Assembly: GCA_947184155.2 (NCBI GenBank)
Contig: CAMXCT020001431.1
Location: 89,107 to 153,106, forward strand
Source of the DNA: Cladocopium goreaui
Taxonomy: Eukaryota > Sar > Dinophyceae > Suessiales > Symbiodiniaceae
Direction: 5' to 3'
Length of the DNA stretch: 64,000 nt
Below the pieces are notes generated by a model. The model did not search any database and was not told where the DNA came from. It saw nothing but the letters and a program-made list of their open reading frames with translations. Numbering within the stretch: the first letter of the stretch is position 1; each line of letters begins with the position of its first letter. The position numbers were made by a program, and so were the translations under genes. Below are positions 4,813-59,154 of this stretch, piece by piece.

Positions 4813-5058
4813 AATCGCACCCAACCGATGCCCTTGGTGTAGCTATTTAAAAAGATACCAAAAGGACGCCAGAGAGCGTAGGTGGAGGGTAGTGGGAGGG
4901 TTAAAAGAAAGCTTGACCAGTGTGGCTCGGGCGTCGTCAAGATAGATTCTTGCAGTTCGAAGGTCTTTCCAACGACCTTGCCAGCCACATAGTGGAGGTC
5001 CCGGGACATTGTGTAGCAGCGCGTTGCGCCCCCACGGCGAATACTGTATAAAGAGAAT

Positions 5059-5244
5059 TCATTGAGTTGAATTCGGAAAAGCACTTTTCAATAGTCTACC
5101 TAAGAAGTCGCTCATCTTGGCCCTCATTTCATTTTTCTCCTCAGGAGAGCCCTTCATTTTCTGCATTGGGACGAGGAACTGGAGGTCGTCGGGCTTGAAA
5201 CCTGCAAGCACCATCAAGCACCAGCCTTTCCATGAGTTTCTCAT
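5059..5244 (-). CDS. Possible C-terminal tail of the Tpt1-like ORF in another frame
   Basis: Where the main frame drifts into RRPPVPRP and stops at 5141, the +1 frame reads GFKPDDLQFLVPMQKMKGSP and then EEKNEMRAKMSDFLGRLLKS, ending at a TGA. This is more protein-like than the tail of the main frame. A 1-nt indel, a programmed shift or an unrecognised intron near 5230 could join them. The evidence is compositional only. Confidence 0.4.
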   Translation of the reverse strand: MRNSWKGWCLMVLAGFKPDDLQFLVPMQKMKGSPEEKNEMRAKMSDFLGRLLKSAFPNSTQ

Positions 5245-7180
5245 AGATTTCCAGCGTCTGGATCACGGGTGTTAACATATCCCGTGGACGTCCTCCACAC
5301 ATTTTCTCGCCCTGCATCCACTCTTCCTCCTTTGCCTTGGCCCTGAACATTACATCAAGCTCCTCTTCCGATGGGCGTCGAAGCGTCCCATCATCGTTGT
5401 CGCCTGTGTAAGGGCAAATACCATCCAAGTCCAGCCTCCCGACGTTAACGGTAGTCATTTGGGCCCGGTATTCCTCGGGTGTCATCATGACACGCTGCTT
5501 GTAGTAGTACTTGTACATGCCCATAATCTTGACCAAAACAGCATTGTCGAAAAGCTGAGCCGCACCTTCGGACGAATCGTTGTTGATCAGTCCTTTTGCG
5601 GGCAATCGTATGCTCCCGACATCAAGGTTCAATGCCCAGTTCGGCATCTTTTCTGCCTCGCCGGCAGTTCCGGCATCTCCAGTGCCTTCTTCCTCTTCTT
5701 CATCATCAACGGCGACTTCTTCATCATCGTCTTCTTCTTTCATTTCCTCGTCGCCTTCGTCATAGTCAACCTCGCTAGGGTCAAACCCGTAGTTGTTGTC
5801 TTGGGCAGCATTTTCTTGTGCCTCGTTGACAACGTCTTTGAAGATGGTCTCATTGTGCCGGCGGACTTCTTCATCGATCTGCCGTTTTGTGGTCTCCTCT
5901 TCGTCCTCCTCCTCAATGATTCTGTATGGCTTGATGCCATGGCTTTCGAGTGCTGTCCAGCACGCCAAGCAAATGGCAAAGACAGTTGGAGTCTCCTTGA
6001 GACAGTGAGGACAATACCGGCACCCTGATTCTGTGACCGGTTTCTTTTCGAGGATATAATCCACGAGCCTGATGCGCCCTTCGTATTGTTCTTTTCCACC
6101 TTCTGGAATCATGTGGTTCTCAAACTTGCTGATGAGGCTCATGGCGTCCATGGTCAGCTCATCGAAGGGTTGCTCCTCCACGCTCAGGCATTGCTTGGCC
6201 AATCGCAGCAGTGACTCTTTCGTTGCGACAATAGGAGACTGCACGCGCCCAATGCGGACGACTTGATCATCTCCTGATTTCACAATCAATCGTTCCCATG
6301 CTGCTTTGGAATTTTGAATCCATTCACCCTTGATCTTGGAGAATGGAATGATTTGGTCCGTCACCACTTGTCCTGAGTCGGTCAAGCGTCCGTTGAACTC
6401 GTTCATCAGGATCTCCGTGGGAATGTAGAGGCATATAAATCCTCCTTTCCTGGTGTCCACACTCTTTGTCACCTTCCATGAACGTGGATCCCATGGGACA
6501 TACGGATTGAAGAATGTAAAAATTCTTGCACTTGCGCTCAATCCACCAGGAATCAGACCTTCCTTCCAAATACTCCTCAAGTGTCTGCTGGATGTGATGT
6601 GAAAACAGACCGGCATTGATACCACCGTGCTTGGAGCAATTGGATGGGATAGCAAGGTCGATCTCAACTCGACGTCGTTCGAAGTACGAGCATCTCCATG
6701 TCCAGTAGGAGCTCTCACCGCGACAGGGTAAAGAAGCAGGCCCTCTTCAGGGATGAAGGTGGCGGTCGATACACCGTTACACCGACATGTGTCACTGCTT
6801 CGATCGATGTCAGGAAAGATACCGAACGCGAGCACTTGTTCACGAACACGTCGACCATACCTTGCACAGTAAAACATGATCTTGAAGAGCGTTTGCAGCC
6901 GGAACGTTGCTTCCTCTTCGTCCCAGTTGTCCTTGGTCTTTGCTTTCCCAAAGGGAACAAGGAACGTGTGAGGCCATCTTAATCTTTCGCGCCTCCATAT
7001 TCCTTCGCATTGAAGAACATCATCGATTGGGACCCATCCGGCATCGTCGCATACTAAGCTCTGATTCTCAGAAGCTTTTCCGACTTGATGCCTATAAGGA
7101 TGCGATTCAGGGCTCCACTCACTTCGTCTTCGTAGTTTGACAGCTTGTTCTGTTGCCCGAATCGAGAATCGATTCCATAC
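5141..7180 (-). CDS. Tpt1/KptA-like RNA 2'-phosphotransferase domain protein (ORF6)
   Basis: The first ATG is at 6877 (578 aa to the stop), but the frame is open from 7180 and the upstream part carries family motifs. In order: SHPYRHQVGKA (R-H dyad, codons 7093-7088) and DDAGWVPIDDVL resemble the Tpt1 N-terminal lobe. PVAVRAPTGH (Arg 55, counted from the ATG) resembles 'IRAxQGH'. CFHITSSRHLRSIWKEGLIP matches 'lyHGTs...sI...GL.pG'. GFICLYIPTEIL and GRLTDSGQVVTDQIIPFSKI match the C-terminal lobe, with Arg 164. Known Tpt1 enzymes remove a splice-junction 2'-phosphate from tRNA using NAD+. A zinc-ribbon-like CPHC...CLAC (Cys 289-306) and an acidic stretch follow. The usual H-x-H after the GL motif is replaced, so activity is uncertain. 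The true start lies inside the end of ORF5. Confidence 0.75.
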   Translation of the reverse strand, partial: VWNRFSIRATEQAVKLRRRSEWSPESHPYRHQVGKASENQSLVCDDAGWVPIDDVLQCEGIWRRERLRWPHTFLVPFGKAKTKDNWDEEEATFRLQTLFKIMFYCARYGRRVREQVLAFGIFPDIDRSSDTCRCNGVSTATFIPEEGLLLYPVAVRAPTGHGDARTSNDVELRSTLLSHPIAPSTVVSMPVCFHITSSRHLRSIWKEGLIPGGLSASARIFTFFNPYVPWDPRSWKVTKSVDTRKGGFICLYIPTEILMNEFNGRLTDSGQVVTDQIIPFSKIKGEWIQNSKAAWERLIVKSGDDQVVRIGRVQSPIVATKESLLRLAKQCLSVEEQPFDELTMDAMSLISKFENHMIPEGGKEQYEGRIRLVDYILEKKPVTESGCRYCPHCLKETPTVFAICLACWTALESHGIKPYRIIEEEDEEETTKRQIDEEVRRHNETIFKDVVNEAQENAAQDNNYGFDPSEVDYDEGDEEMKEEDDDEEVAVDDEEEEEGTGDAGTAGEAEKMPNWALNLDVGSIRLPAKGLINNDSSEGAAQLFDNAVLVKIMGMYKYYYKQRVMMTPEEYRAQMTTVNVGRLDLDGICPYTGDNDDGTLRRPSEEELDVMFRAKAKEEEWMQGEKMCGGRPRDMLTPVIQTLEIYEKLMERLVLDGACRFQARRPPVPRPNAENEGLS

Positions 7181-8082
7181 TCAACACCGCTGTAAAATTT
7201 GTAATTGTAAAACTGACACCCGGTGTTGGGAACGATTTTCAGGAAGCCATCCATCGGTGCTTCGACTCTCTTATGCATTGGCTTGCGGGTGTTCTTGTCG
7301 GCGTAGGCCGCAAGGAAGTCTGGAACCTTCCAGACGTCACCTCCTCCACGCATGATGGCGTCTCGAATCACATCGTCGAGATCGTAGCGTGTCTTTGGCC
7401 CCTCGCTGACAATGTCGCAGCCATCAATGCAGAATCTTCCTGCCTCATCCAAGTCTCCGACCTCGGACATCAAACGACTGTCATCGTACCAATGGTACTC
7501 ACCTGTTCGGGCTTGATCTGGTTCTGCTGGCCCTTTGGACTCATCTGTCTCGCCCGAACCATCCTTCTTCTTCTCACCCTCCTGCTCCATTTCAACGCCG
7601 GAGCCTGAACTTTCACCTTCAAGTGCAGTTCTGATTGCATCAAGAGCCTTCTTGAGGTCAGTCCTTTTGGGGTCTTCGCATTCGTCGTGGGTGTGTTTTG
7701 TGCTCCCACAAAAGATGCAAACATTGACCTCCTCGGAGGCGGTGAAGAAATTCCCAAGAGCATCGAGGAGATATTGCTTCCCAGATCTTTCGGAAGCACG
7801 GGCGGCCTCAGTGTCGGCTTCGTTAGGCTCCTTGGCTTCTTCCTCGTCGCCCATGTCAACGTCATCCACGATGTTGTATTTCTTGCGGAACTTGTCAATC
7901 ACCTGTTGCTTGTCCCATGTGGTCATGCAATCAAACTCAGTGAGGCTTTCGTAATCGGGGATGGTGTTGATGATAGTCAGCACCTCTTCGGCCTCAGAGG
8001 GTTGTAGAGTGCAGTCGAATGATCCGCGTCTCTTCTGATTTGTGGTGAATGTGGTTCTTGCCATGGAACCAAATGCGGTCAA
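7054..8082 (-). CDS. CCHC zinc-knuckle protein of the retroelement (ORF5)
   Basis: The open frame begins near 8124; the given start at 8082 is TTG and the first ATG is at 8064. Residues 122-135 read CIFCGSTKHTHDEC, an exact CX2CX4HX4C retroviral-type zinc knuckle, followed by a Glu/Lys-rich linker. The C-terminal region (TGEYHWYDDSRLMSEVGDLD and onwards) is globular but unrecognised. Zinc knuckles normally sit in Gag and bind RNA; here Gag has CCCH fingers instead and the knuckle is in a separate frame. The ORF overlaps ORF4 by ~34 nt and ORF6 by ~127 nt, each downstream frame being -1 relative to the upstream one. Confidence 0.7.
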   Translation of the reverse strand: MTAFGSMARTTFTTNQKRRGSFDCTLQPSEAEEVLTIINTIPDYESLTEFDCMTTWDKQQVIDKFRKKYNIVDDVDMGDEEEAKEPNEADTEAARASERSGKQYLLDALGNFFTASEEVNVCIFCGSTKHTHDECEDPKRTDLKKALDAIRTALEGESSGSGVEMEQEGEKKKDGSGETDESKGPAEPDQARTGEYHWYDDSRLMSEVGDLDEAGRFCIDGCDIVSEGPKTRYDLDDVIRDAIMRGGGDVWKVPDFLAAYADKNTRKPMHKRVEAPMDGFLKIVPNTGCQFYNYKFYSGVEYGIDSRFGQQNKLSNYEDEVSGALNRILIGIKSEKLLRIRA

Positions 8083-8090
8083 TGCCTTCT

Positions 8091-11000
8091 CTAAACCATT
8101 GAGAAATTCGGTGGGTCGATGTGGTCATCGAACACATCAATGACGCCCTTGGCCATGCTGGCGATGTCCAGAACTCCAAGCCAGAACTCTATGATGTCGC
8201 CCACTTTCTCAGCAGTTGCTCTTGTGAAAGCAAAGATCCCATTTCTCTCCTTCATCTCGGGGACCGCAACCTGTTCAAAGAAATCTTTGTATGCGACGTT
8301 GCCGCAATCTTTGGTGACCCTAAACGCCAAAATCCACTTCCCAGGACCTTTGTCAAAGATCCTCTCTCTGTAGATGCTGAATTGCTTTCCTCGGCCGTTC
8401 TTGAAGATCTCCTTGGCCTGATTGTGAGGAATGCGTGCACTACCCATGTGGGACAACGATTTCATCAGCTCTTCCCCATATTTCAATTGCTTGTTGCTGA
8501 TTACAGACGCTGCTGCAAACACCAACCATTTTTGGAAGTTCTTGCCGATGTCGAGTTTGTCCAAGCCGCAATTCTTGAAAGCGACTTTCAGGCGGGCAGC
8601 AAGCAAAAGCACCGACTTTCGTGCGCCCAGCGTAGGAGCCGATTTGCGATAATGGTCCTGAGTGTTCACTGAACAATTGATGCACGAAGCGGGCTTGTAC
8701 TGAGCAATCTCAATTTCGTCCATGGTCCTGGCGGCCCTGCAATGTTCACATAGAAAATCGACACTATCAGGAAACACCGGGAACCAGTAACAGTTGAATG
8801 ATTCCTCGGGTTCAAGCTCATGGGACCTGACCATCGGTTCGATCCACTGAGCCTTGTGCCGTTTCTCCTTGTTGAATCTCGTGGTGGTTGAGCCTGTAGT
8901 GGATGTGCCCTTTTGGTAGATCGGTACATCACCTTTGGCGTAGTCATCTGGTGTCATATCACCGCTAGCGATTCTGAACACCTGAGGTGGGCCGGTGACA
9001 TCAGCGAGCATCTCCGCATTCACGCCAGAATGTTTGGGTCGATATGCGCCCTCGTTGAGGGTTGACACATGTTCCCGATTTGTGGCGCACATAAGGAAAA
9101 CGCGCTGTCTGAAAAGGTTCTTCTCAATCACAGACCAAATGGCGTTCTTGCCAAGTGTACCCTTTCTCGTGGCCCTCAACGGACTGAATTGGCCACCAAA
9201 TTGTGAATGCATCGACCTCCACATTCTTTGGTCAGTCGTTACCATCACACCTTCCCTCTTCAGACCTTCAGTCAACTCAACAGCGAGTCTGGATGTGATG
9301 GAATCCATGCCATTGAATAGGGAGTCAGTGTTGATGGCAACGATCACGGGTCGCGATGCAACTTGGTCGAGATCGGTCACGCACTGGATGAACTCCTTTT
9401 GGAACGATGGCGGCACCACCACGTTATGTGGCGGTTTGGCATCATGCAGGAACTGGAGCGATAACCAAACATGAACGGTAACCAGTCCCAGATCATTCAA
9501 ATCCTTGCTCAAGTACTCGATGACTTTGTCAACAGTGTCACGGAACTTTGAAATGGGGAGTGCGGATTCCGATTCATGGATCTTGAACAAATCGATGTTC
9601 CATCCCATGTCATGCAATCCCATGCCCAAGTCATGCCTGCCAGTCGAAGTCACGATGTGATGAGCCAAATCTGTGATCAGGATCGTTGTTCCTTTCCTGA
9701 ATTTTCCAGACAGCATGTCGGAGTTCTTCTGTGTCCTGGGGTTCTCAACAATCTCACATGCGAGTGGATTGCAGATCTTCTTGACCACTTCCCCCATGCC
9801 GGACAAATGTGCCACGTCCTTGTCGTTCTTTCCGAGCATCATCAATAGCCCGGCAGTCGACAAATAGCATCCCGTACGGGTCAATCCGTACGTTCTCACT
9901 AAGTGGCTATAGCACTTCAACCAATCTTTCTCAGAAATTCGGGCGGCATCTGCATCCGTTACAACGTTGTTGTTGCACACACCAAAAACCATGCAACCGT
10001 ATGTTGTAACCCTACGCAAATATTGTGCCCAGCCCGATACATGTGCCCCAGCTGCTGCTGGGCCTTGGATGATTGAAAGCAGAAAAGCATCATTCTCATT
10101 CATCCATGCTGAAGAAGATAACATCGTTCCTCGATGATCAGGACAAGATGATGTGAACAACTTGTAACCGATAGGCGGCTCTGGGGTTACCCAATCTGGC
10201 GGGTAATCAGGTGGCTTCGGTCGCGCCTTCGGAGGTGGCTTTGCAGAACTTCCTGTCGCTCCAGCTGAAGAGGATGCGTCGCCCCCGGTGGGGGTTGGAC
10301 GTGCCTTTGGTTCAGGAGGAGGAGGTGCAGGCCCTGCTTGTGCTCTCCTTCTTTCATCATCAGCCGCTGATTGCTGCTGATTCATCATCACAATTGGATG
10401 TGGGTCCCATGTCGGAGGCACCCCTTGTGCTGGAGGGTATCGACCATCTTTGGGCAAAAGTGGAATGTTCCAGTTGTCGATGTGCTCAACCTCGGTGACA
10501 CCTTGGGCGACTTGACTTGCGGATGTTGTCGTGATAAAATCACGGATGCAAGAAAAGGTGCGATTCCTCTTCTCGATGGAGTCGAACGATCCTTGGTCTG
10601 CGCTGGCGACGTTGTAGCCCCCAACTTCCCAGATGTCATCCCGAAGGTCAAATGATCCCTTCACATTCTTCAACTTGTTCTGGATGGTCCTTCTGAGGCT
10701 TTGCATCTCCTTGAATGTCTCCATTTTGGAGACCCACTCGTGCAGCATTGCCGATGCCATGAGCATCGTCTGCAAATGGATGACCGCAGCCGTCCTTTCG
10801 AGGGTCAGGTCGTACCTCATAGACACCCAGTCTTCCAAGACGTCCTGGATGATGATAGATTGGCCAGGAGTGCTGGCCTGGTGCATCTTGGCGTTATGAC
10901 GCCGAAGTGCGTAGCCAAGGTTGGCACCCTCGCCTTCTAGGATGTCCCAAAGCGTCTTTGCCCTGTTTTCGATATCAGTCATGCTGGTCTTTTCCCGCTC

Positions 11001-11771
11001 CATGACGTGGAACGCCCATTTCTCCCAATACACTCTGGTCATTGGGAACCAGGCAGCTCTCAACCTGATTTGGTGGCAAATGCTGTTGCCAGGAGGATGC
11101 GACTGGTTCAATGATCCCATGTTCACAATGCTTGTGTTGGAGATCTTTTCTCTAAGCTGCCGCACCGTGACTGTTCGGTTGATCATGTTGTTTGTGCCGG
11201 AGTACTGGCTTTTCAAGGTCTCCCAGAACTCGCCAATTCTGACTGGACATTCTCTGGTGGACAACATCTTGAGGAAGCTAAAATCATCACCACGAGCTCC
11301 TCGTTCAACCAACTTTGATAGTGTTGAAGCCTTATCCACAAAATCCGACACTGTAAGATTCAATTCATCTTCATCGGTCACTTGCATCATCAATTTCAGA
11401 AGAAGATGAATCGCGTGAGACACATGAGATCTGTGAATCCTACCAGCAACGAAGCCTAATGCAACGACCACTGACGGTGGGACCTGTACGACTGTTATCC
11501 AGTTTTCCAGCTCTCGGTCAGGGTAGAATCTGCTATCGGCGTCTTCAAATGTCGAAAAGGCTTTGGGCAGCTGACCAGTCTGACCGTCTACCACTTGCAG
11601 CGTCTTCTTCAATGCTGCGTACCCTTTGGCTGCGGAGACAGTGACACTCTTCTTCTCTGGCATCGCGTCGGCGATACCAACCAGAGGGGAATCCGGATCA
11701 GCAATAGATCGTCCGCGATGCGGATTGAATCTATAAGCTTCACCTTCAAACCACCTCGGCGGCAAATCCAA
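8091..11771 (-). CDS. Large retroelement protein of unknown function with zinc ribbon (ORF4)
   Basis: 1,226 codons; the given start is TTG and the first in-frame ATG is at 11663. Residues 1-36 already look like protein (PPRWFEGEAYRFNPHRGR), and the ATG at 11803 in the frame +1 to it begins MNQYCDQLLLD, so a frame change near 11770 may join them. An alpha-helical N-terminal half is followed by a Pro/Ala-rich linker at about 490-545. A mixed alpha/beta region at about 640-900 contains ITDLAHHIV, VHVWLSLQFLHD and TTDQRMWRSMH; this vaguely recalls SGNH-hydrolase blocks but lacks a clear catalytic Ser. CEHC (1008-1011) and CINC (1030-1033) form a likely zinc ribbon. No family is identified with confidence. 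It lies between the methyltransferase-like and CCHC ORFs. Confidence 0.65.
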   Translation of the reverse strand: MDLPPRWFEGEAYRFNPHRGRSIADPDSPLVGIADAMPEKKSVTVSAAKGYAALKKTLQVVDGQTGQLPKAFSTFEDADSRFYPDRELENWITVVQVPPSVVVALGFVAGRIHRSHVSHAIHLLLKLMMQVTDEDELNLTVSDFVDKASTLSKLVERGARGDDFSFLKMLSTRECPVRIGEFWETLKSQYSGTNNMINRTVTVRQLREKISNTSIVNMGSLNQSHPPGNSICHQIRLRAAWFPMTRVYWEKWAFHVMEREKTSMTDIENRAKTLWDILEGEGANLGYALRRHNAKMHQASTPGQSIIIQDVLEDWVSMRYDLTLERTAAVIHLQTMLMASAMLHEWVSKMETFKEMQSLRRTIQNKLKNVKGSFDLRDDIWEVGGYNVASADQGSFDSIEKRNRTFSCIRDFITTTSASQVAQGVTEVEHIDNWNIPLLPKDGRYPPAQGVPPTWDPHPIVMMNQQQSAADDERRRAQAGPAPPPPEPKARPTPTGGDASSSAGATGSSAKPPPKARPKPPDYPPDWVTPEPPIGYKLFTSSCPDHRGTMLSSSAWMNENDAFLLSIIQGPAAAGAHVSGWAQYLRRVTTYGCMVFGVCNNNVVTDADAARISEKDWLKCYSHLVRTYGLTRTGCYLSTAGLLMMLGKNDKDVAHLSGMGEVVKKICNPLACEIVENPRTQKNSDMLSGKFRKGTTILITDLAHHIVTSTGRHDLGMGLHDMGWNIDLFKIHESESALPISKFRDTVDKVIEYLSKDLNDLGLVTVHVWLSLQFLHDAKPPHNVVVPPSFQKEFIQCVTDLDQVASRPVIVAINTDSLFNGMDSITSRLAVELTEGLKREGVMVTTDQRMWRSMHSQFGGQFSPLRATRKGTLGKNAIWSVIEKNLFRQRVFLMCATNREHVSTLNEGAYRPKHSGVNAEMLADVTGPPQVFRIASGDMTPDDYAKGDVPIYQKGTSTTGSTTTRFNKEKRHKAQWIEPMVRSHELEPEESFNCYWFPVFPDSVDFLCEHCRAARTMDEIEIAQYKPASCINCSVNTQDHYRKSAPTLGARKSVLLLAARLKVAFKNCGLDKLDIGKNFQKWLVFAAASVISNKQLKYGEELMKSLSHMGSARIPHNQAKEIFKNGRGKQFSIYRERIFDKGPGKWILAFRVTKDCGNVAYKDFFEQVAVPEMKERNGIFAFTRATAEKVGDIIEFWLGVLDIASMAKGVIDVFDDHIDPPNFSMV

Positions 11772-11819
11772 TCAAGTAGTAGTTGATCACAATACTGGTT
11801 CATTCTGTCTTCATCCTCA

Positions 11820-13532: not shown

Positions 13533-16500
13533 CGTATCGGTCGTTCTTGTGACGCCGGGGGTCGCGATGTGACTTGCCCGGAACGCCTTATAGCGGCTGC
13601 CGATGGCAGTTGTTCGCTATCATTGGATTGATGGTACTGGAAACAAGCACGTTCTACCCATTGATCAAAACGATCTTGTTGTTGGACAGGGTGAGCTCGA
13701 TTCTCGACTTTAATCCATGTGCCATGAGTCAATATCCATGTGCTGCGTAAACAGTCTTTGGATAGTGACAAACCGCTCGGACGTTTCCTGAAATATGTCG
13801 GCTTCTTAACGACCAAAATAGGATCCATACCGGGTAACTGTTGTACTTGTTCCTTGCCTGAAAGTCCCTTCTGATACACTTCGGGTGGTAGGATAGGAAT
13901 CTCAGTGTAAGGAAAATTTGGTACGTCATTTGTTTTGGTTTGAAAAACTTGGCGAACCGTGGTGTCGACATTGGTAGTCGGTGAGACCATGTCGAGCAGT
14001 TCCTTCGAAACGATGTCACCAGGGTCCAATAAATTGATAAGCATGCAAGCTCTTTTCCATGACAGGGGGTTCTTGAATCCTTTGGTGTGAATGTCCGCGG
14101 CCATTTTGGAAGTAACTTCATACATCAATACGTAGTTCTCCTTTGTAAAATGTTCATGGAGGGAAGTAATGGCTATGCCATGGGTCCTCTCAAGATGCCG
14201 CATAGTGGGGTTACGACGCGACCGGACAACACCGATCATGCCCTGATTGTCATCATGCAACAATAATTTGGGCGATTTCCCTGTCAAAGTTTCCCAAATA
14301 CTTAATGCAGGCAATCCCATCGTTCGAAGGGTGACATCTGCCGCCACAATCTCAGCCTCAGGTGTGGAATGACTTACGCATCCCTGCCGTTTGCTGCCTC
14401 CAGACAACGGGAAGCGGGTTTGTTTCCCTTGTATGTGCATATGAGACCCAGATGTTGATCTCAAAGTTTGTGCACAACCTGCAAAGTCCGCATCTGCGAA
14501 TAAAGATAATGATAAATCATCAAATTTGTTGCCAACACATCCAGTCATCCGTTTAGATAAACTTGAGTTGACATAGCACATTAGATGATACAGTTTAGCA
14601 TCATCGTCGACTGTCCACTTGGTCACATTCCTGGCCAAAGAATTGATAGACCGTAACAAGTCGAACCGTGCGATCCTGGCAGCGTATAGCAACTTCATGA
14701 GCACGCTGGCAGCATGTGGCGCTAAAGCGCCTCGTGCAGACTCCCTAGGAGAGACGTCTTCCCCTGTGGTGCCGGGTTTGTAGAACTCCGGAGCGTCTGG
14801 GTCAAATTCATGCGAACACCAGGGACAGGATACCTTCTTCTTGGGATCCCCTGGACATGGTGCCCTTGACTTGTGTTTCTTTGTTTCTTCTGGTAAACTT
14901 GGTGTTGACACGTGTTTCAACTTTGTGTCTTTTCCCACAATATCAAGATACCTTTCAACTGACAATTTCAACAAACCTTCCATGTCGTAGGTCATAGTTG
15001 ACACCGGGGTACCATCATGAAGTTTGGAAGACCCTTTGCTCAATATGCATCCCAAATAGAGTCCCAAGTCAGTCTCGGGCTCAATGTTCAGCTTAGAGCG
15101 TAGCATCTCCCATGCTTTAGTCAGGTTCTCTTCCGGACCAGCCAGTTTCAGGTCATCAACATAAATAACTAATAACAATTGAAGCTTCTTGTGAAAATAC
15201 ATTGACGGCCATTCTTCGCCAACAGGGACAAAGTCTAACTCCCGTACTTTCCGATCACAATGCTGTTCCCACATTGTACCTGAATCAGGATGACCATAAA
15301 GTGCTTTAACCAATCTCACTACTGGTCTACGGAACTTCCGGAAGTCAATGTCATCTGGCCATGCGTCTTCGGGTAATTCTACCCAACATGGTGGCCCTGT
15401 GAGGACTGCTTGAATGTAAGCTTGAATAGCATCTGCTAATTTTACTCCATGGCCCGGTAAACACCCATAAAAATCTGCCCATCGCGATGCCTCAAAGGTT
15501 GCAGGTGAATTGCCCAGGTCTCGGAAGAAGGCAGCCTCCCAGAATTGGTTCTTCACTTGGTTACCCAGCAAGACTCCTCGTCCTTTGAACTTCCTGCTGG
15601 GGTTCCCTTTGGGCAACTGATAGTTCTTCTCCACGCAGATTCCATGGATCCTAGCCATGTGTACCTCAGTGCCATTCTTCTTCGCTTCTGGAACAACATC
15701 ATCGTACTCTCTGACCACGCTGAAGTCGTAGACTCCAGCAGCATGCTGACCTAACCATTCCTTTCTCATGGCCTTTCGAGCTTCCTCATTTTCCATCATC
15801 TCCTTTCTAGCAACTGGTCTTGCTACTGCCGTGTTGGACATCTTGTTGATATTGATTCCACCATCATTTGTGATAATCTTATCTCGGTGATGATCTTGTT
15901 GATGAATGCACGGCATACATGGGAATGATTGGAAATTTGTGCTCTGATTGCAAGGCTCATGAACATTGGGTCCGGCATCGTGCAATGTTGCTGTTGCAAC
16001 TACCTTCCCCTGGCTAAAATCATACATGTGCTCATTGTGCCAAGTAGCCTTTGGGCCGCGCCCACTTTCAACCTCAGGCCATTCGTCCCAATCGATGAGG
16101 AAATCGTCATCAGCGGGGACGTCAGTGTCGGATGAGGAGGATAATGCTCCATAATCAGCATTGGTCCCACTCCCGATGGGAGTTAAGGACGTTTTGCCAA
16201 ACTGAAACACTTTTCCCCGGCGAACATGATCTTGCGGTTTGGCTACGCCTGTGACATGGTCATCATCTTCTCCTTTTGGTTTTGACTTAGAAGATTTCTT
16301 CTCCTCCTTCTTCTTCTTCTTTTCTTCCCTTGCCTTGATCAACGCGTCGCTCTTCTTCTTCTTCTCCACATCAGCCTCCGCTTTCTTCTCCTCAGCTTTG
16401 GCGATGCCCTTTCGGACATCAGGAGACATCTTTCGCCATTCTTCTGGAGAATACTTTGATGGTCTTGTAGTGGATGAAATCCGACGTCGGCCGCGTTCAT

Positions 16501-18940
16501 CAATTCGGTAGGGATGACCACGAGAATTCAACTTTACCCATTCACCATCATCATTCAGGTAGACAATTCCATCGCCAGCCTTTCCAACGGAGTAGTGTTC
16601 AGGACCTCCTTCAGGAATAGCAAGGTCAGGATGAGCAGGCTTGTCGATACCTGGTGGTCTCATTCTCGCTGGACTGTCAAATCTTCCCAGCAATCTTTCA
16701 GCTTCAAGTTCACCTTCAGATTTATCTGGCGGGACCTTCGATGAAGGTTGCCCACCGCCATTTCCTCCATCGTCATCGTCATCATCGTCATCATCAGGCG
16801 GTGGTGGTGGTAACATCTCAGAGTTCCCATCCAATCTGTCTTTGACCTTCAAACCTTCAATGGTAACATTGATTCTTTCATACTCAGCTTTGCAAGGGAA
16901 TTCCAAGGGTTCCTTCAACTCAACCTTTTCGGTGTAATGTGCTGTGCGTAGCTTCGCAATTGGTTTCCCAGCATCATATGCTAAGTTTTGTTTGGTCCAA
17001 TCACATAGAGCCCAAACACGATACTTCCTTGACCAGTGCAATCCCGGCCCCAATGAGTACCCAGCAAACACTCCAGGAATACCCATCGGATCAAATTTGT
17101 GTTGTTGTTCTCTAGCGCGGGCATCACTTGGTTTGAAGTACACTAATGCACCAAAAGGGATCATCTTTCCCTTGAATTCTTCCCCATGAAGCTTACACCA
17201 AGAGCTGACCTCATCATCGTTGGGTTCAATGTTGAGCAAATGGCTAACACATCTAATAGCATACATCCAAAAACACGGAGGAATGCCAGCTTCAAGTAGA
17301 CATGTTGTAGTTGCTACCAACACGAACTGATTGGTCCTCTCGGCAAGTGAGTTGTGCTTGGTCTTTCCGGCCAATGATGTATCCATGGGAATCTTCAAAG
17401 CTTTCATGGCCTTGTCAAACTGGGGTGCATCATCTGAGTACGCTTCACGGATCTTTCGTCGACCCATGAATTGCTTCACTGCTCTAATCACTGCCTCAGT
17501 GTCCTTTCGAGCAGATGGATAAGACTGTAGCATTCCTGTATATCGGTCGCGAATAACGAAGATGGTCTTGTCATCGCCATAGTCCTGTTCGGCGATTCGA
17601 CGATTGTCGACGTAGTCAAACGTGATCAAGTCTCCAAACTTTGTGAGTTTACGTTGGAATGCTCCTCGAAAAGTCTTTCGATGCTTCATCTTTGCACGTA
17701 CGCATGACTCACAATATGGGTTCTTGTATCTATGGGTTAACAAGTGGAGCTTCGACCTAGCTTCATTTTTGAGTGTCCCTCTTTTGCTAAGCCTAACTCC
17801 TCCATCTTCTTCATCTACATCGATGACATCATCATCATCTTCACGTGCTTCTCCTTCGGGGATTTCTTCAATTTCTACGTCATGCTCACCTTCTTCGGCA
17901 TCTGGACCCAAACTTGGTTCGTAGCCGTCATCATCGTCGAATTCGGAATACTCATCGCCACGGTCATCAGGTTCATCATCATGACATGCCAATTCTTCGA
18001 TATAGTCAGGATCACTTCCAACAGCAACTTCGGGCAAAGTCTTGTTCTTTTTCCTTTTGACTTTTCTGACTTTGGCCTTCTTCGATGACTTGCCATCCGA
18101 CCGCCGGACGATGTCGGTTAGGTCTTCTAGCTCGTCACCGCTCTCACCATCAATGACCATCAGGCTTTCACCCTCAGATGTAGAACATTCATCGCTGATA
18201 ATGTTGAGAACTTTGGCAATCTTCGATGATGTCCCTTTCTTCTTCTTCTGGTCTATGTTGACATAAGGGATGTAGTCTCTAACAGTCATTTCGATGATGT
18301 TGCCATTGGAGTCAAGCATATATGGAGTCTTCCCGGATGGCCATATGAATGAGTAACCAAGGTCAACACAACGTTTCCCCATCGACATTACTGACGGCGT
18401 GTCCTCCAGGATATGTGCTTGAGCAGGCTCGTCAAAGGCTTCGAACTTGATGTCAGACCGTTTGGTTGAACTTGTGACACCATTGGCAGTGTGAAAATTC
18501 ACCACCGTGTCGTCATAGGTCGGCAGATCCATTCTGTCAATCTTCTTGGCGGATATCAGATCGTGTCCGCTTCCTGAGTCCATAATGAACCTCTTGTCTC
18601 TCTCTTCAACTGGGACAGTGATGCACATGATGTTGTCCCTTTTCCCGTAGCGCCCATCAATGTGCTGGACATAGTTTTCCGCGAACACTTCACGTGTCAC
18701 GTCATCATCTTCATACTCAATTCTGATCATAATGTCCAACGTTGGGCCAACGATGATAAGGACTTCATCAATGTCACTGTAGTCATACTTCTCATCCAAA
18801 ATAATAGCCATTGCCTTCCCACGACTTCGAGCAAGTCTACAAGAATAAGCCCATTGTTCATCTTTTCTGATTTCATCCGTGGTCCTACCCACCTTATTAT
18901 GCCCTTTGGAATAAGTTTGGGACTTGCGCGAACTCTTCAC
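13490..18940 (-). CDS. pol: Ty1/copia Pol polyprotein: protease, integrase, RT, RNase H
   Basis: 1,816 codons from GTG at 18940; the frame is open from 18976 and is -1 to gag, with the first ATG at codon 44. Aspartic protease: FIMDSGSGHDLIS (Asp 121). Integrase: HHCC zinc site H399, H403, C410, C413 and catalytic D442, D503, E534 (TFDYVD, YSDDAPQFD, NSLAERTNQ). A long acidic/Lys-rich insertion of ~400 residues (700-1100) follows. Reverse transcriptase: D1170 and YVDD at 1260-1263. Unusually, a Cys-rich insertion (SCPWCSHEF near 1371) lies in the RT-RNase H connection. RNase H: D1483, E1528 or E1530, D1563 or D1564, D1616. The order integrase before RT is diagnostic of copia. All catalytic residues are present and the frame is intact. 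A ~170-residue tail after RNase H is unassigned. Confidence 0.95.
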   Translation of the reverse strand: MKSSRKSQTYSKGHNKVGRTTDEIRKDEQWAYSCRLARSRGKAMAIILDEKYDYSDIDEVLIIVGPTLDIMIRIEYEDDDVTREVFAENYVQHIDGRYGKRDNIMCITVPVEERDKRFIMDSGSGHDLISAKKIDRMDLPTYDDTVVNFHTANGVTSSTKRSDIKFEAFDEPAQAHILEDTPSVMSMGKRCVDLGYSFIWPSGKTPYMLDSNGNIIEMTVRDYIPYVNIDQKKKKGTSSKIAKVLNIISDECSTSEGESLMVIDGESGDELEDLTDIVRRSDGKSSKKAKVRKVKRKKNKTLPEVAVGSDPDYIEELACHDDEPDDRGDEYSEFDDDDGYEPSLGPDAEEGEHDVEIEEIPEGEAREDDDDVIDVDEEDGGVRLSKRGTLKNEARSKLHLLTHRYKNPYCESCVRAKMKHRKTFRGAFQRKLTKFGDLITFDYVDNRRIAEQDYGDDKTIFVIRDRYTGMLQSYPSARKDTEAVIRAVKQFMGRRKIREAYSDDAPQFDKAMKALKIPMDTSLAGKTKHNSLAERTNQFVLVATTTCLLEAGIPPCFWMYAIRCVSHLLNIEPNDDEVSSWCKLHGEEFKGKMIPFGALVYFKPSDARAREQQHKFDPMGIPGVFAGYSLGPGLHWSRKYRVWALCDWTKQNLAYDAGKPIAKLRTAHYTEKVELKEPLEFPCKAEYERINVTIEGLKVKDRLDGNSEMLPPPPPDDDDDDDDDGGNGGGQPSSKVPPDKSEGELEAERLLGRFDSPARMRPPGIDKPAHPDLAIPEGGPEHYSVGKAGDGIVYLNDDGEWVKLNSRGHPYRIDERGRRRISSTTRPSKYSPEEWRKMSPDVRKGIAKAEEKKAEADVEKKKKSDALIKAREEKKKKKEEKKSSKSKPKGEDDDHVTGVAKPQDHVRRGKVFQFGKTSLTPIGSGTNADYGALSSSSDTDVPADDDFLIDWDEWPEVESGRGPKATWHNEHMYDFSQGKVVATATLHDAGPNVHEPCNQSTNFQSFPCMPCIHQQDHHRDKIITNDGGININKMSNTAVARPVARKEMMENEEARKAMRKEWLGQHAAGVYDFSVVREYDDVVPEAKKNGTEVHMARIHGICVEKNYQLPKGNPSRKFKGRGVLLGNQVKNQFWEAAFFRDLGNSPATFEASRWADFYGCLPGHGVKLADAIQAYIQAVLTGPPCWVELPEDAWPDDIDFRKFRRPVVRLVKALYGHPDSGTMWEQHCDRKVRELDFVPVGEEWPSMYFHKKLQLLLVIYVDDLKLAGPEENLTKAWEMLRSKLNIEPETDLGLYLGCILSKGSSKLHDGTPVSTMTYDMEGLLKLSVERYLDIVGKDTKLKHVSTPSLPEETKKHKSRAPCPGDPKKKVSCPWCSHEFDPDAPEFYKPGTTGEDVSPRESARGALAPHAASVLMKLLYAARIARFDLLRSINSLARNVTKWTVDDDAKLYHLMCYVNSSLSKRMTGCVGNKFDDLSLSLFADADFAGCAQTLRSTSGSHMHIQGKQTRFPLSGGSKRQGCVSHSTPEAEIVAADVTLRTMGLPALSIWETLTGKSPKLLLHDDNQGMIGVVRSRRNPTMRHLERTHGIAITSLHEHFTKENYVLMYEVTSKMAADIHTKGFKNPLSWKRACMLINLLDPGDIVSKELLDMVSPTTNVDTTVRQVFQTKTNDVPNFPYTEIPILPPEVYQKGLSGKEQVQQLPGMDPILVVKKPTYFRKRPSGLSLSKDCLRSTWILTHGTWIKVENRAHPVQQQDRFDQWVERACFQYHQSNDSEQLPSAAAIRRSGQVTSRPPASQERPIRCHLVRPTSRNILD

Positions 18941-21900
18941 GTAGTCCTTCTTCTCATAAACACATAAACATGGACTTCATCTTTCTGTGGGCTAAACTTG
19001 ACCTTCTTCTTCATCACATTGGACGCAATCATGAAAGGTGGTTCATCCACATCGCTGTCGTCATGAAGAAGTGCAGGGGCCGCTTTTGATGATGGAGACT
19101 CAGTGTTTGGTGCTGTGTTGAACAAGTGAGCATCATGTCGCTTGTTGCACTTGTCACCATATCGACATTTGCCCTTTGCCCAGTGCCAGCATGGTTCATC
19201 GATCTTCTTGGTCTTGTTAGCTGGAGACTGTCCTCTTGGCGTCTTACCACCTCCTTTACCATGCCCACCACTCTTGCTTGCATCAAAGGTCTTCTGATCG
19301 TGACTGTACTCACAATCCTTCCCTTTCTTGCAAGATTTCTTGATGAAGTGGAAGTGACAAGGAATCTTCTTCTTTTCACGAGGACTGGCGCTTCGGCTCT
19401 TCGACTTTCCTTTCCTTCCTTGCCCTTTCCCTTTGGCATGTTGTTTCGGCTGAGGTGATGGTAGTACAGGAGCAGCATCAGATTTTGCTTTGGGCTTTGG
19501 AGTAGCCTTCTTAGCATTTGCCTTTGCTTTCGCTTTGGCGTTTGCATCAGGAGGAGCTGGAGCAATGGGAGTAGGCGCAGTCGGCCTACCTCCGCCAGCA
19601 AAGTCTCTGGCATACAAATCCCTTGCCGCGACGTGCTTGTCTTCTCTGATCCTGGCAATGTGACGCTCGATCACATTGATGAGATACTGATATGTTCTCC
19701 TAGGATCTCCTTCCATCCATGATTCATACTGCTTTATGTCATACACCATCAAGTTGGAGTTCCTGATCTTCTTATATAATGCATCACGCAACCAATCATC
19801 TTGAGGTACATCTTCAGGCATCATATTGGAGACAATCTCCATCCACTTTTCATAGAACGTTTCAATGTTGGCATCACCCAGGTATCGTGATTGAATGATA
19901 TGCTCCATGGTGAATGCAGTCTCACGCTGACCTGGGGTCCTGAAATGTTCCAGAATCATGGCAAGAATTTCTCGTCCCATGACAAAAGTCGCTCTTCGAT
20001 TGCTAGCTTGGGTCCTCAGTCTTAGCTTAATTGCAGCATGTCGAGCTACATCACCAGCTTGTGAAATAACGTTCGATAGTGCAATGGAAAGCTTTGCATC
20101 AATAGACTGAAGCCTTTGCCCACCGCTATCGTTCAGAGCATCGATGTCAGGGTTTTGCCTGAGTGCTGGTTGTAACCAGGCTTCCCATGCGGCTCTGTCG
20201 CCGTCGTTGGCTGCGAGGCATACACTTTTGATGAGATCAGATTGCCAAACACCCAAATTCTGGTGCTTTGGCCATGGACTGATGTATACCTTGTCCGCTT
20301 CTCGTCGGGATATCCTCGGGGGTTCTTCAGCAGTGAAAGCCGTTGTTGACTCAAGATCAATTGCTGAATCCCTCTGTGATCCTCGAAGCGAAGGCAAACC
20401 AGGTGGGATAGGAGGTCCAGGAGGCCCGTTGGGATCAGGAGGCCCACTTGGGAAATCTGGATCATCACTGCCGCCGGGCCTCTTGTAGTCAGGGATGCCT
20501 GCTCCTTCAGCGACACTAACTCCTTTCCCGTCCAAAATCTTCTTGTTGACCTCACGTAGGAGTTCAGATACTCTCTGATTCTCAGGATGTGCAGATCGTT
20601 GGTATACTTGCTCTGTACTTGCAGCATTGTTTGAATGAGCCGCCGTGTATTCTTTGTTGAGTTCTTCATCAAGTTGTCGAATCCATGCACGTAGAATATT
20701 CGACTCATCATTTGCTGCTTCAATATCACTCTCCAACTTCCCAATAATCATGTAGGGTGATAGACCACTGCTCGTGATACCTGCAGAGAAGGGGAGCGCG
20801 TTGAGACTCTCTTGGCTCTTGATGGCTATTTCTGCATCTATGAGACTCTTTCTCAACTTCGATATCTCCGCATCCTTCACCTTCAATTTCTCATCTCTAT
20901 CCCTCAACTCACCCAGGTATTCACATGATCGTTCATATTGCTGGGCACCTGTGGCTAGTTTGTATTTACGTTCGCTTTCAAGCTCAGTCCTGAGGATAGC
21001 GACTTCAGATCCGAGGGGGGTCGACGACCCTTGCCTCGAAGCATCAGCCAATTCGTCCTTCAGCCTGATGTTCATGCACATACATTCATCCATTTCTTCA
21101 GAAAAATCCTGGGCCCTAACCTGTGCAACCTTGACCTCTGTTTCGAGATGTTGAATTGCAGATTGGTTAGAACCGTGGCCGATGGCCATTGGGTTCTCCT
21201 GAAGTGATCGTCTCAGTTTCACGTTTCGGTCCTCGATCTCGGTCTTGAGCTCGTTGGTCAATGCTCGCTCGTTGTTGTAGAGCATCTCATAGTGTTCCAT
21301 TTTCTCTCGAGCATTTGAACTAAGATTTGATTCAAGCCTCAACTGAGCAATAGCCTCGGCCCCAGTATTCCTGTAATTGGCGAACCGCTTGACAGTATCA
21401 TGTTCAGTATTTCTATGTCTTAGATCATTTTCAAGTTTGGCATGATTGGCTTCATTGATTTTCTTGCGATACTCTCTAGTGATCTGTTCCATGTTGTTTT
21501 CGTACAGTTCGGCCTGTTTACGGGAATGGACAAGTGCTTCACCCAGAATCTGGTTCTCATCATTGAGCTCACTGACCGCAAACGCTTGTCTCTGACTTGT
21601 CATCTCCAAATGAGTGTGTGAGAAGTTTGCCAGTTCAGATTGATTACGATACTCCACTATGGAATTCTCAAGACTTCTCTGCATTTCACTTCCTTCTTGG
21701 TACAAAGTCTCAGCTACACTCCTAGCAAGGCTACTATCATGTTGCATCTGCTGTAGACGTGATTCAGTGTTCCCAAGTAGTCCTTGAAGGTGGTGTACTT
21801 CGTCCTTGTACTCTTCCTGGATCTCAAGACCGCATTCATAGATTCGTCTGGCACCATGTTCAGCTAATGCACCTCGACGTTCAAGATCTTCAATACGGAT

Positions 21901-22515
21901 AGTTGCACCTTCATCTTCCTTGGAGGCCAACATCAATTCGGCATGGTATTCAGTTACCTCATTGGTTGAGTACATCAATCGACTGTTGAGGGCATTAATT
22001 TCAGTGAATACCTGTTGATTATGTCCGCGAAGATATTCGGTGAACTTGGTCTCAATGTCCCTAATGACTTGATCCCTTGAAGCAGCGTACATCTCGGATT
22101 GTGTCACTTTCTCTCTCAGAGTTTGACATTGTTCTCTAAGCTCTTCAATGATAGCTATTGGTTCATTGCTACCACGTGCTTCTGTTGATCTTCTCTTGGC
22201 ACTAATATCACTCGACTCCCTACCATGTTGGTCCTCGACTGCCCTCGGGGTCCTATGTCCGGTAGGTGTTCTCCTTGGTGATCGACGGCTTCGTCGTGCA
22301 TTTCCACTTCGAACCACGTCACGTGCCGATCTTGGAGTACTGGTAGTTGATGCTCTTCGGTGTCTAGTAGTCATCTTCTGCCATCCAGATTTTGTTGTCT
22401 TTGTGGATTTGTCCCCACTGTCAGCAGTTCCCGGAGAAGATTGTGAAACACCTTCTGCAGGGGCTGCGGCATTACCGTCAAAGGTAAACTGCGTCTCTCC
22501 ACTGTCGCCTTGCAT
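18937..22515 (-). CDS. gag: Gag-like protein with long coiled coil and tandem CCCH fingers
   Basis: 1,192 codons from an ATG at 22515, no interruptions. Residues 1-110: Ser/Arg-rich, disordered. About 110-600: heptad-rich coiled coil. About 690-725: Pro/Gly collagen-like linker. About 760-990: helical capsid-like domain (YISPWPKHQNLGVWQSDLIK through YLINVIERHIARI), as in copia Gag. Then an Ala/Pro/Lys linker and two zinc fingers: CX8CX5CX3H at about 1053-1072 and CX7CX5CX3H at 1109-1127. Copia Gag normally has one CCHC knuckle; tandem CCCH fingers bind RNA in host proteins such as Tis11. Pol follows in the -1 frame with a 40-nt overlap and no classical slippery heptamer that I can see. Confidence 0.85.
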   Translation of the reverse strand: MQGDSGETQFTFDGNAAAPAEGVSQSSPGTADSGDKSTKTTKSGWQKMTTRHRRASTTSTPRSARDVVRSGNARRSRRSPRRTPTGHRTPRAVEDQHGRESSDISAKRRSTEARGSNEPIAIIEELREQCQTLREKVTQSEMYAASRDQVIRDIETKFTEYLRGHNQQVFTEINALNSRLMYSTNEVTEYHAELMLASKEDEGATIRIEDLERRGALAEHGARRIYECGLEIQEEYKDEVHHLQGLLGNTESRLQQMQHDSSLARSVAETLYQEGSEMQRSLENSIVEYRNQSELANFSHTHLEMTSQRQAFAVSELNDENQILGEALVHSRKQAELYENNMEQITREYRKKINEANHAKLENDLRHRNTEHDTVKRFANYRNTGAEAIAQLRLESNLSSNAREKMEHYEMLYNNERALTNELKTEIEDRNVKLRRSLQENPMAIGHGSNQSAIQHLETEVKVAQVRAQDFSEEMDECMCMNIRLKDELADASRQGSSTPLGSEVAILRTELESERKYKLATGAQQYERSCEYLGELRDRDEKLKVKDAEISKLRKSLIDAEIAIKSQESLNALPFSAGITSSGLSPYMIIGKLESDIEAANDESNILRAWIRQLDEELNKEYTAAHSNNAASTEQVYQRSAHPENQRVSELLREVNKKILDGKGVSVAEGAGIPDYKRPGGSDDPDFPSGPPDPNGPPGPPIPPGLPSLRGSQRDSAIDLESTTAFTAEEPPRISRREADKVYISPWPKHQNLGVWQSDLIKSVCLAANDGDRAAWEAWLQPALRQNPDIDALNDSGGQRLQSIDAKLSIALSNVISQAGDVARHAAIKLRLRTQASNRRATFVMGREILAMILEHFRTPGQRETAFTMEHIIQSRYLGDANIETFYEKWMEIVSNMMPEDVPQDDWLRDALYKKIRNSNLMVYDIKQYESWMEGDPRRTYQYLINVIERHIARIREDKHVAARDLYARDFAGGGRPTAPTPIAPAPPDANAKAKAKANAKKATPKPKAKSDAAPVLPSPQPKQHAKGKGQGRKGKSKSRSASPREKKKIPCHFHFIKKSCKKGKDCEYSHDQKTFDASKSGGHGKGGGKTPRGQSPANKTKKIDEPCWHWAKGKCRYGDKCNKRHDAHLFNTAPNTESPSSKAAPALLHDDSDVDEPPFMIASNVMKKKVKFSPQKDEVHVYVFMRRRTT

Positions 22516-22889
22516 CTTTGCGATGTTGGTGCTGATCGGACTTCACGATCGTTTGCACCTAACGCTGGCTAACAGCGCGCAGGTACTCCGCTTCCGATGG
22601 AAGTTGAGAGCCCTTACGGCTGATAACCTGTGAACAGACTAATCCCTGTTCCGGATGTGCTCAATGAGTTTCGGAGTTTCTGCGCTTTGCCGTTTGTCAG
22701 CGTTTCAAGCGAATGTGGAGGACATGGCAGCGTTATTATTTTCCTGTTGCGGGCGCTTGAGCCAACAGTGCGTTGGCGGTTATTGCCCTGAACACATGGG
22801 ACTATTTTACACTGTAACCCATGTGCGTGTGGTTTAGTTCCCTTTCACATTTTCATTGTTTTATCATTTATTATTATTATTGTTATTTT

Positions 22890-32240: not shown

Positions 32241-32244
32241 AAAT

Positions 32245-51960: not shown

Positions 51961-51984
51961 TTTACACAAAGTTTGCACAAAACA

Positions 51985-59135: not shown

Positions 59136-59154
59136 GTTACATACGTAATCTTTT

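What the first reader, a model, noticed from the sequence alone, without database searches (positions are those of the whole stretch)
5059..22515. Giant copia-type retroelement with four extra protein modules after pol
Seen directly: ~17.4 kb of almost gap-free minus-strand coding sequence. After a complete copia pol come a methyltransferase-like ORF, a 1.2-kaa zinc-ribbon ORF, a CCHC ORF and a Tpt1/KptA-like ORF. Known copia elements end at RNase H and are about 5 kb. A retroelement that apparently carries DNA/RNA-modifying functions would be a distinct mobile system. Retrotransposons with captured cytosine methyltransferases have been reported in dinoflagellates, which makes the general idea plausible; this combination of modules is, to my knowledge, not a standard one.
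Basis: partly seen in the sequence, partly recalled or inferred. Interest (0 to 1): 0.92.

Follow-up and report, generated by a model that had tools for sequence, protein, structure and literature searches.

The report
Giant algal retrotransposon with RNA-repair domain
A 19-kilobase jumping gene in a dinoflagellate genome makes one protein of about 6,000 amino acids that adds an RNA-end-repair domain and a DNA-methyltransferase-like fold to the usual copying machinery, and its ends carry a piece of the host's own spliced leader RNA.

Summary
The six minus-strand ORFs are one degraded copy of a giant Ty1/copia LTR retrotransposon. Five other copies have LTRs of 195-211 bp and measure 19.0-19.2 kb; two read the whole unit as one open frame (6,045 and 6,044 codons). 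The modules after RNase H belong to the element: all six window ORFs are collinear with that frame; 18 of 19 further KptA-bearing copies have RT about 7 kb upstream; 15 of 19 copies chosen only by LTR/PBS have the KptA region about 16 kb downstream. The extra modules are under purifying selection (omega 0.01-0.20 where computable). KptA/Tpt1 is solid. The 'methyltransferase' has a predicted C5-cytosine-MTase fold without any sequence match; the '1.2-kaa zinc-ribbon ORF' also holds an SGNH fold without nucleophile serine. New here: 18 of 18 LTRs examined carry 9-15 nt of the 3' end of the dinoflagellate spliced leader at one position, so the RNA is probably trans-spliced and the leader starts R. 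The window copy keeps its 5' LTR, has broken frames and lacks its 3' end. Enzyme activities are untested; the primer RNA was not found.

The parts
22629..22849 (-). 5' LTR of the window copy (about 221 bp, TGTGAAAGGG...TTCACA)
   Evidence: blastn to the LTR of copy C1665 (73%, E 3e-15); ends read from sequence; aligned with five other LTRs
22756..22765 (-). 10-nt match to the 3' end of the dinoflagellate spliced leader (TTGGCTCAAG) inside the LTR; proposed start of R
   Evidence: 0 of 2000 dinucleotide shuffles of this LTR have as long a leader-3'-end match
22615..22628 (-). primer-binding-site-like sequence GGTTATCAGCCGTA directly after the LTR
   Evidence: one match in the window, 0.02 expected; the same 14-mer follows the 5' LTR in the five other copies
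18937..22542 (-). Gag-like ORF, 1201 aa stop to stop (first Met near 22515): coiled coil, then CCCH zinc fingers near 19132-19371
   Evidence: Pfam zf-CCCH_4 and zf-CCCH above cut-off; 89-91% identical to C1665, 62% to C6079
13490..18976 (-). Pol: aspartic protease (DSGSGHD), integrase and RNase H (motifs read by eye), RT (YVDD); copia order
   Evidence: RVT_2 1.5e-6, Asp_protease_2 0.0035, SH3_retrovirus 0.046 (all below cut-off in this copy; RVT_2 above it in P0110); 82% identical to C6079 pol
11820..13616 (-). Module with a C5-cytosine-methyltransferase-like predicted fold; core about 11835-12596 (FFAGPCTGGSPWNRLN...LLELP...FDGCMYGL...KKPW)
8091..11771 (-). 1226-aa ORF: helical module; SGNH/GDSL-hydrolase-like fold (about 9084-9716) with TDL in place of GDS; CxxC...CxxC zinc-ribbon (about 8670-8753)
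7054..8124 (-). CCHC zinc-knuckle module (CIFCGSTKHTHDEC, CX2CX4HX4C) and N-terminal edge of the KptA domain, cut by a frame break
   Evidence: collinear with C6079 and C1665
5141..7180 (-). Rest of the RNA 2'-phosphotransferase (Tpt1/KptA) domain and downstream CxxC region; truncated near 5059
   Evidence: 90 homologues, many carrying PF01885; unbroken homologue L011:1679-2731 PF01885 4.1e-7, 30.6 bits against cut-off 26

Best explanation
This is a 3'-truncated, frame-broken copy of a giant autonomous Ty1/copia LTR retrotransposon of a dinoflagellate. The intact form is about 19 kb with about 200-bp LTRs and one open frame of about 6,045 codons: Gag (coiled coil + CCCH) - protease - integrase - RT - RNase H - C5-MTase-like fold - helical module - inactive-looking SGNH fold - zinc-ribbon - CCHC knuckle - KptA/Tpt1 - C-terminal region. 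SHOWN: the element's anatomy, its multi-copy nature, co-inheritance of the extra modules with pol, purifying selection on them, and conservation of the KptA active-site residues. INFERRED with good support: the genomic RNA gets the host spliced leader (DinoSL) by trans-splicing at the AG of ...GGCTCAAG inside the LTR, so the leader begins R, and strand transfer writes leader sequence back into each new LTR. INFERRED only: after cleavage of the polyprotein, KptA clears 2'-phosphates from RNA ends that the particle needs (a processed primer RNA, or genomic RNA nicked by host RNases), and the zinc modules and MTase-like fold bind or modify the RNA/cDNA.
For: Five LTR-bounded copies, LTRs 98.5-100% identical; LTR TG...CA in 4 of 5 (C463 is reported with one extra G before TG); clear 5-bp target duplications in 3 (TGATA, CAATA, TTTAT), ambiguous in an AT repeat in 1, not seen in 1; purine run before the 3' LTR. 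Single frame of 6,045/6,044 codons in C6079/C5892. The window ORFs are collinear with it. 531 exact LTR-end/PBS junctions in the genome, control 0. LTR core motif 166 places, control 3; the 100 places listed contain 30 neighbouring same-strand pairs, 20 of them 18.3-19.5 kb apart and 18 of these 18,810-18,953 bp. 18 of 19 and 15 of 19 linkage tests. omega 0.01-0.17 in the post-RNase H modules for the five pairs with dS computable throughout. KptA: PF01885 in 14 of 18 members of alignment A3; in those 18 rows, not chosen by motif, the tetrad columns read Arg 15 of 15 and His 14 of 15 (3 rows gapped), Arg 17 of 18, Arg 18 of 18, and HxT 18 of 18. DinoSL 3' end in 18 of 18 LTRs. Diverged clades (P0110, P0121; 45 and 43% identical in the MTase region) keep RT-RH-MTase-KptA motifs in one protein.
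Against: No RNA data: trans-splicing, expression and cleavage are not shown. No primer RNA found: patterns for an anticodon-arm half-tRNA gave only control-level matches, none of them tRNAs. The MTase-like module has no PF00145 or PHROG match and a null profile-profile score to seven C5-MTases; its motif I region lacks glycines; Foldseek's own list shows other methyltransferases (METTL16, PsiM) and no C5-MTase. CpG is not depleted in the elements (o/e 0.69-0.84, against 0.33-0.63 in the four flanking stretches sampled), so there is no footprint of self-methylation. omega of the extra modules is somewhat above that of AP, INT and RT. 4 of 19 junction-selected copies lack the KptA region at the tested distance; 1 of 19 KptA-selected copies lacks RT there, and 3 of the 18 with RT carry stops in it.
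Confidence: 0.85

Rival explanations
1. Chance arrangement: an ordinary 5-kb copia element beside unrelated host genes.
For: No Pfam hit reaches its cut-off in the four downstream ORFs of this copy, and the frames are broken.
Against: One uninterrupted frame between identical LTRs in other copies; LTR spacing clustered at 18.8-19.0 kb; linkage in 18 of 19 and 15 of 19 copies.
Confidence: 0.01
2. The region after RNase H is a structural or env-like module set (particle assembly, RNA packaging, membrane or cell-to-cell steps); KptA, MTase-like and SGNH folds are kept as dead scaffolds that bind nucleic acid.
For: SGNH nucleophile missing (Leu or Phe in 20 of 20 rows with a letter there); MTase motif I degenerate; no CpG depletion; rotifer LTR elements and some LINEs carry SGNH domains with proposed assembly or membrane roles (PMC5408684, abstract and passages).
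Against: KptA keeps its tetrad and HxT in nearly all rows; the MTase-like core keeps Pro-Cys and Glu in 30 of 30 rows, more than a scaffold should need.
Confidence: 0.3
3. The MTase-like module is an active C5-methyltransferase that marks the element's cDNA or RNA, as proposed for SymbioLINE-Dnmt and SymbioDIRS-Dnmt3.
For: C5-MTase fold; conserved PC and ExP; precedent of active retrotransposon DNMTs (PMC5890265, abstract and sections 6-7).
Against: No sequence relation to PF00145 detected; motif I glycines absent; only a short segment with a conserved CxxxHxHxxC lies where the target recognition domain would be expected (position inferred); no CpG depletion.
Confidence: 0.2
4. TGGCTCAAG in the LTRs is an inherited promoter or polyadenylation element unrelated to the spliced leader.
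For: Most copies match only 9-12 nt; 14 nt in one and 15 nt in one. The LTRs are related, so the 18 cases are not independent.
Against: 18 of 18 LTRs match exactly the leader's 3' end, 117-135 nt from the LTR end, including five from a clade whose LTRs otherwise look different by eye, with the sequence after it not shared between subfamilies.
Confidence: 0.15

Closest known systems
Ty1/copia LTR retrotransposons (Pseudoviridae type)
   Same: Protease-integrase-RT-RNase H order, RVT_2 RT, short TG...CA LTRs, 5-bp target duplications, PBS-like site after the 5' LTR, purine tract before the 3' LTR.
   Different: 19 kb against about 5 kb; one 6-kaa frame; about 2,900 aa of extra modules after RNase H; leader sequence in the LTR.
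SymbioLINE-Dnmt and SymbioDIRS-Dnmt3 (PMC5890265; abstract and sections 6-7 read)
   Same: Dinoflagellate retroelements with a cytosine-MTase module.
   Different: Those are LINE and DIRS elements with recognisable DNMTs; that paper states that the Copia superfamily of Symbiodinium lacks any DNMT domain. Here the fold is only structurally recognisable and sits after RNase H of a copia element.
Rotifer LTR retrotransposons with GDSL/SGNH or DEDDy ORF3 (PMC5408684, abstract and passages), SGNH ORF1 of some LINEs (PMC3905857, search listing only), additional ORFs of plant LTR elements (PMC7264820, search listing only)
   Same: Extra enzymatic ORFs in a retroelement, SGNH among them.
   Different: Here inside one polyprotein, without the nucleophile serine, and beside KptA.
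Tpt1/KptA, RNA 2'-phosphotransferase (PMC6333775, passages; E. coli KptA read from NC_000913)
   Same: PF01885 match, Arg-His-Arg-Arg tetrad, HxT.
   Different: Embedded in a retroelement polyprotein. PMC9503650 (passages) reports KptA in phages, sawfly baculoviruses, a mimivirus and a few RNA-virus polyproteins; the words retrotransposon and transposon do not occur in it.

Membership tests
Ty1/copia LTR retrotransposon | protease - integrase - RT - RNase H in that order | tested here: met
   Motifs in order, integrase and RNase H by eye, in window ORF 13490-18976 and in C6079; RVT_2 and protease matches
Ty1/copia LTR retrotransposon | paired LTRs, target-site duplication, PBS, purine tract | tested here: met
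   Paired LTRs in 5 of 6 places fetched, clear TSD in 3 of these 5; the window copy itself has only the 5' LTR; the RNA that pairs with the PBS was not found
Ty1/copia LTR retrotransposon | RT branches within the copia clade in a tree | not tested
   No tree was built
Tpt1/KptA (PF01885) | profile match above curated cut-off | tested here: met
   30.6 bits against 26 for L011:1679-2731; the window's own broken ORF reaches only 17.8 bits
Tpt1/KptA (PF01885) | Arg-His-Arg-Arg active-site tetrad | tested here: met
   A3, 18 rows: Arg 15/15, His 14/15, Arg 17/18, Arg 18/18; columns matched to E. coli KptA by eye; tetrad definition from PMC6333775
Tpt1/KptA (PF01885) | NAD+-dependent removal of 2'-phosphate | not testable with these tools
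   needs biochemistry
C5-cytosine methyltransferase (PF00145) | C5-MTase fold | tested here: met
C5-cytosine methyltransferase (PF00145) | sequence match to the family | tested here: not met
   No PF00145 hit at E<=10 in 4 MT cores; hhalign to 7 C5-MTases prob 0.3
C5-cytosine methyltransferase (PF00145) | motif IV Pro-Cys, motif VI Glu, motif I FxGxG (motif names recalled) | tested here: inconclusive
   Pro-Cys and Glu in 30 of 30 rows of A1; no glycine in the five motif I stretches printed
SGNH/GDSL hydrolase | fold | tested here: met
SGNH/GDSL hydrolase | catalytic Ser in GDS block | tested here: not met
   Column after the conserved Asp is Leu in 18 and Phe in 2 of 20 rows with a letter, 8 gapped
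DinoSL-trans-spliced transcript | leader relic at the acceptor site in DNA | tested here: met
   9-15 nt of the leader 3' end in 18 of 18 LTRs; leader sequence from PMC12014239
DinoSL-trans-spliced transcript | full leader at RNA 5' ends | not testable with these tools
   no transcript data were searched

The most novel reading that the evidence does not exclude
An LTR retrotransposon whose terminal redundancy is supplied by the host's spliced leader: its RNA is capped by trans-splicing at a site inside the LTR, the first strand transfer pairs leader cDNA with the leader relic in the 3' LTR, and each round rewrites the relic. The same element carries its own KptA/Tpt1 to clean 2'-phosphorylated RNA ends (primer or genomic RNA) inside the particle; as far as the searches named here go, it would be the first NAD+-dependent RNA-repair enzyme in an LTR retroelement.
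Probability: 0.45. Interest if true: 0.88.

Novelty: new variant of a known kind. Interest (0 to 1): 0.82.

Why it matters
If right, retroelements can extend pol into a 6,000-residue polyprotein with RNA-repair and MTase-like modules and keep it under selection over many copies. The leader relic in the LTR offers a simple explanation of how an LTR element can live in a genome whose nuclear mRNAs are trans-spliced, and a concrete DNA signature to look for in other trans-splicing lineages. It would also qualify the published statement that Symbiodinium Copia lacks any DNMT domain, at the level of fold, and it gives a testable role for KptA outside tRNA splicing.

Tried and rejected
Primer: I guessed from the copia-like start GGTTAT (recalled) that a half-tRNA primes synthesis. 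A pattern for a perfect anticodon arm gave 1 match against 7 in controls; the tRNA-Ile(AAT) form gave 2 against 2; none is a tRNA by ARAGORN. Not supported; primer unknown. A third, broader tRNA pattern did not complete and I did not repeat it.

DNMT by sequence: no PF00145 hit, no PHROG hit, hhalign null; kept as fold only. PDB sequence searches with the KptA region and its alignment found nothing, hhalign with the untrimmed alignment was weak; the trimmed profile gave P 5.8e-4 to E. coli KptA against 0.15-0.48 for three other modules.

KptA motif count: one search chose its sequences by a pattern that itself asks for LRH and RAxxxH (15 of 18 proteins passed, P0018, P0109 and P0139 dropped), so it cannot count those two motifs; I use the unfiltered rows of A3 instead.

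Viral contigs: no relative of P0004. An RT-selected genome search did not complete, so the unbiased test was done from the LTR/PBS junction instead.

Novelty searches. No title or abstract start that they listed describes a KptA-bearing LTR retrotransposon or a copia element of this make-up. A paper on heat-activated copia (PMC5776459) is not held and was not read.
Full report
WHAT IS THERE. The window holds six long minus-strand ORFs between 5141 and 22542. Pfam sees CCCH fingers in the first, RVT_2 and protease traces in the second, a sub-threshold KptA trace in the last, and nothing convincing in the other three.

COPIES. The window lies in a 1.17-Gb genome of 6,202 contigs. A search with P0004, a homologue that runs from the end of the 1226-aa ORF through CCHC and KptA in one frame, gave 42 matches (a lower bound), with open frames up to 6,045 codons. 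I fetched six places in 10-kb pieces. Five have paired LTRs: C6079 257935-258130/276834-277029 (196 bp, 100%), C5892 (195 bp, 100%), C463 (204 bp, 98.5%), C4146 (196 bp, 99.5%), C1665 (211 bp, 100%); C3002 showed no pair in the pieces. Element lengths are 19,095, 19,095, 19,153, 19,094 and 19,022 bp. Target duplications TGATA, CAATA and TTTAT are clear in three; C4146 lies in an AT repeat; C463 shows none. Each 5' LTR is followed by GGTTATCAGCCGTA, and the 3' LTR is preceded by a purine run. C6079 and C5892 have a single frame; C1665, the closest relative of the window copy among these, has frame breaks of its own. The six window ORFs align in order to the C6079 frame at 55-82% identity and to C1665 at 76-94%.

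THE WINDOW COPY. It keeps the 5' LTR (22629-22849) and PBS (22615-22628) and stops near 5020-5059; the 3' part of C1665 matches the window only through its LTR. A 288-bp tandem array lies beyond the truncation.

ARE THE EXTRA MODULES PART OF THE UNIT? Three tests. (a) Of 20 further KptA-bearing places asked for at the predicted RT position, one ran off its contig; 18 of the other 19 encode the RT with YVDD, 3 of the 18 with stops. (b) The LTR-end/PBS 18-mer occurs 531 times (control 0). Of the first 20 listed places, one ran off its contig; 15 of the other 19 have the KptA region 15.3-16.7 kb downstream: 9 best matched by C6079, 1 by P0108, 5 by the diverged P0110. Four have none there. (c) A 14-mer of the LTR occurs 166 times (control 3). 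The 100 places listed contain 30 neighbouring same-strand pairs; 20 are 18.3-19.5 kb apart, 18 of these 18,810-18,953 bp, and 10 have other distances. The window copy appears in that list with one LTR only.

SELECTION. Module-wise dN/dS (Nei-Gojobori, name recalled) among five copies and the window, seven pairs: in the three close pairs omega is 0.01-0.15 for the nine stretches after RNase H; C6079-C463 gives 0.04-0.13 and C1665-window 0.04-0.17; in the two widest pairs dS is saturated for many modules and omega is 0.06-0.20 where computable. In the three close pairs AP, INT and RT give 0-0.05 and RNase H 0.12-0.29 (few changes). So the extra modules are constrained, a little less than AP, INT and RT.

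KPTA. PF01885 scores 30.6 bits (cut-off 26) on the unbroken C6079 domain and matches 14 of 18 members of alignment A3. In those 18 rows, not chosen by motif, the columns read: LRH Arg 15 of 15 and His 14 of 15 (3 rows gapped), RxR second Arg 17 of 18, RAxxxH Arg and His 18 of 18, HxT 18 of 18, next Arg 18 of 18. The correspondence to E. coli KptA was read by eye from a motif-filtered alignment. The tetrad definition is from passages of PMC6333775.

SPREAD. Protein searches gave 90 homologues of the KptA ORF, 16 of the 1226-aa ORF (only the best candidates were scored) and 39 of the MTase region. P0108 (4,868 aa), P0110 (4,558 aa) and P0121 (3,455 aa) hold RT, RNase H, MTase and KptA motifs in one protein.

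SPLICED LEADER IN THE LTR. DinoSL is DCCGTAGCCATTTTGGCTCAAG and its genomic relic CCATTTTGGCTCAAG (PMC12014239, passages). C6079's LTR contains the whole 15-nt relic (0 of 2000 shuffles); the other five carry 9-11 nt of the leader's 3' end (0-3 of 2000), and the shared TGGCTCAAG is the longest invariant block of the LTR alignment. I then fetched the LTRs of 12 of the 15 KptA-positive places (5 of them P0110-type, whose LTRs otherwise look different by eye; none of the 4 KptA-negative places): all 12 carry 9-14 nt (0-1 of 1000 shuffles each). In total 18 of 18, 117-135 nt from the LTR end; the LTRs are related, so these are not independent cases. The sequence after the relic differs between subfamilies, as expected if the leader part is rewritten from RNA and the rest inherited. 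Trans-splicing itself was not tested.

MECHANISM. Transcription from U3; trans-splicing of DinoSL at the AG that ends the relic; translation of one polyprotein; protease cleavage; particle with RT; first strand to the leader; transfer to the relic in the 3' LTR; integration into AT-rich targets with 5-bp duplication. KptA would clear 2'-phosphates from primer or nicked RNA. The anatomy is shown; the RNA steps and domain functions are inferred. PMC9503650 (passages) describes a clean-up role for KptA in viruses. CpG is not depleted in the elements, which does not favour heavy self-methylation.

KNOWN OR NEW. LTR elements with extra ORFs are a known kind of thing (PMC5408684; PMC7264820 in a listing). 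This combination, size and single frame appear in none of the titles and abstract starts listed. The leader-in-LTR point was not searched for in print. I file it as a new variant of the Ty1/copia kind.

Noticed in passing
window 22756-22765 and LTRs in L009, L014, L015, L018, L024, L076-L087: 3' end of the dinoflagellate spliced leader inside every LTR examined (18 of 18); now part of the main explanation.
   Followed up: yes
window 22615-22628: PBS-like GGTTATCAGCCGTA has no identified primer RNA; together with the next bases in C6079 (CCGTAGGGCTCA) it resembles the leader with its middle missing. Unexplained.
   Followed up: partly
window 38108-40600 (-): 830-aa ORF with RVT_1 reverse transcriptase (1.2e-36), a different retroelement.
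   Followed up: no
window 3780-4806: Tandem array of a 288-bp unit (3.6 copies) beyond the truncated 3' end of the element.
   Followed up: no
window 33738-36465, 46892-47435, 49415-50277, 51262-54291, 58864-61681, 63541-64000: Minisatellite arrays, some open in more than one frame and so giving spurious ORFs.
   Followed up: no
window 23001-33000: Strong CpG depletion (o/e 0.33) beside the element (o/e 0.77).
   Followed up: no
flanks of the copies in L009/L011, L012/L014, L015/L017, L018/L020, L024/L026: The five LTR-bounded copies sit in AT-rich or TA-repeat DNA, suggesting a target preference.
   Followed up: partly
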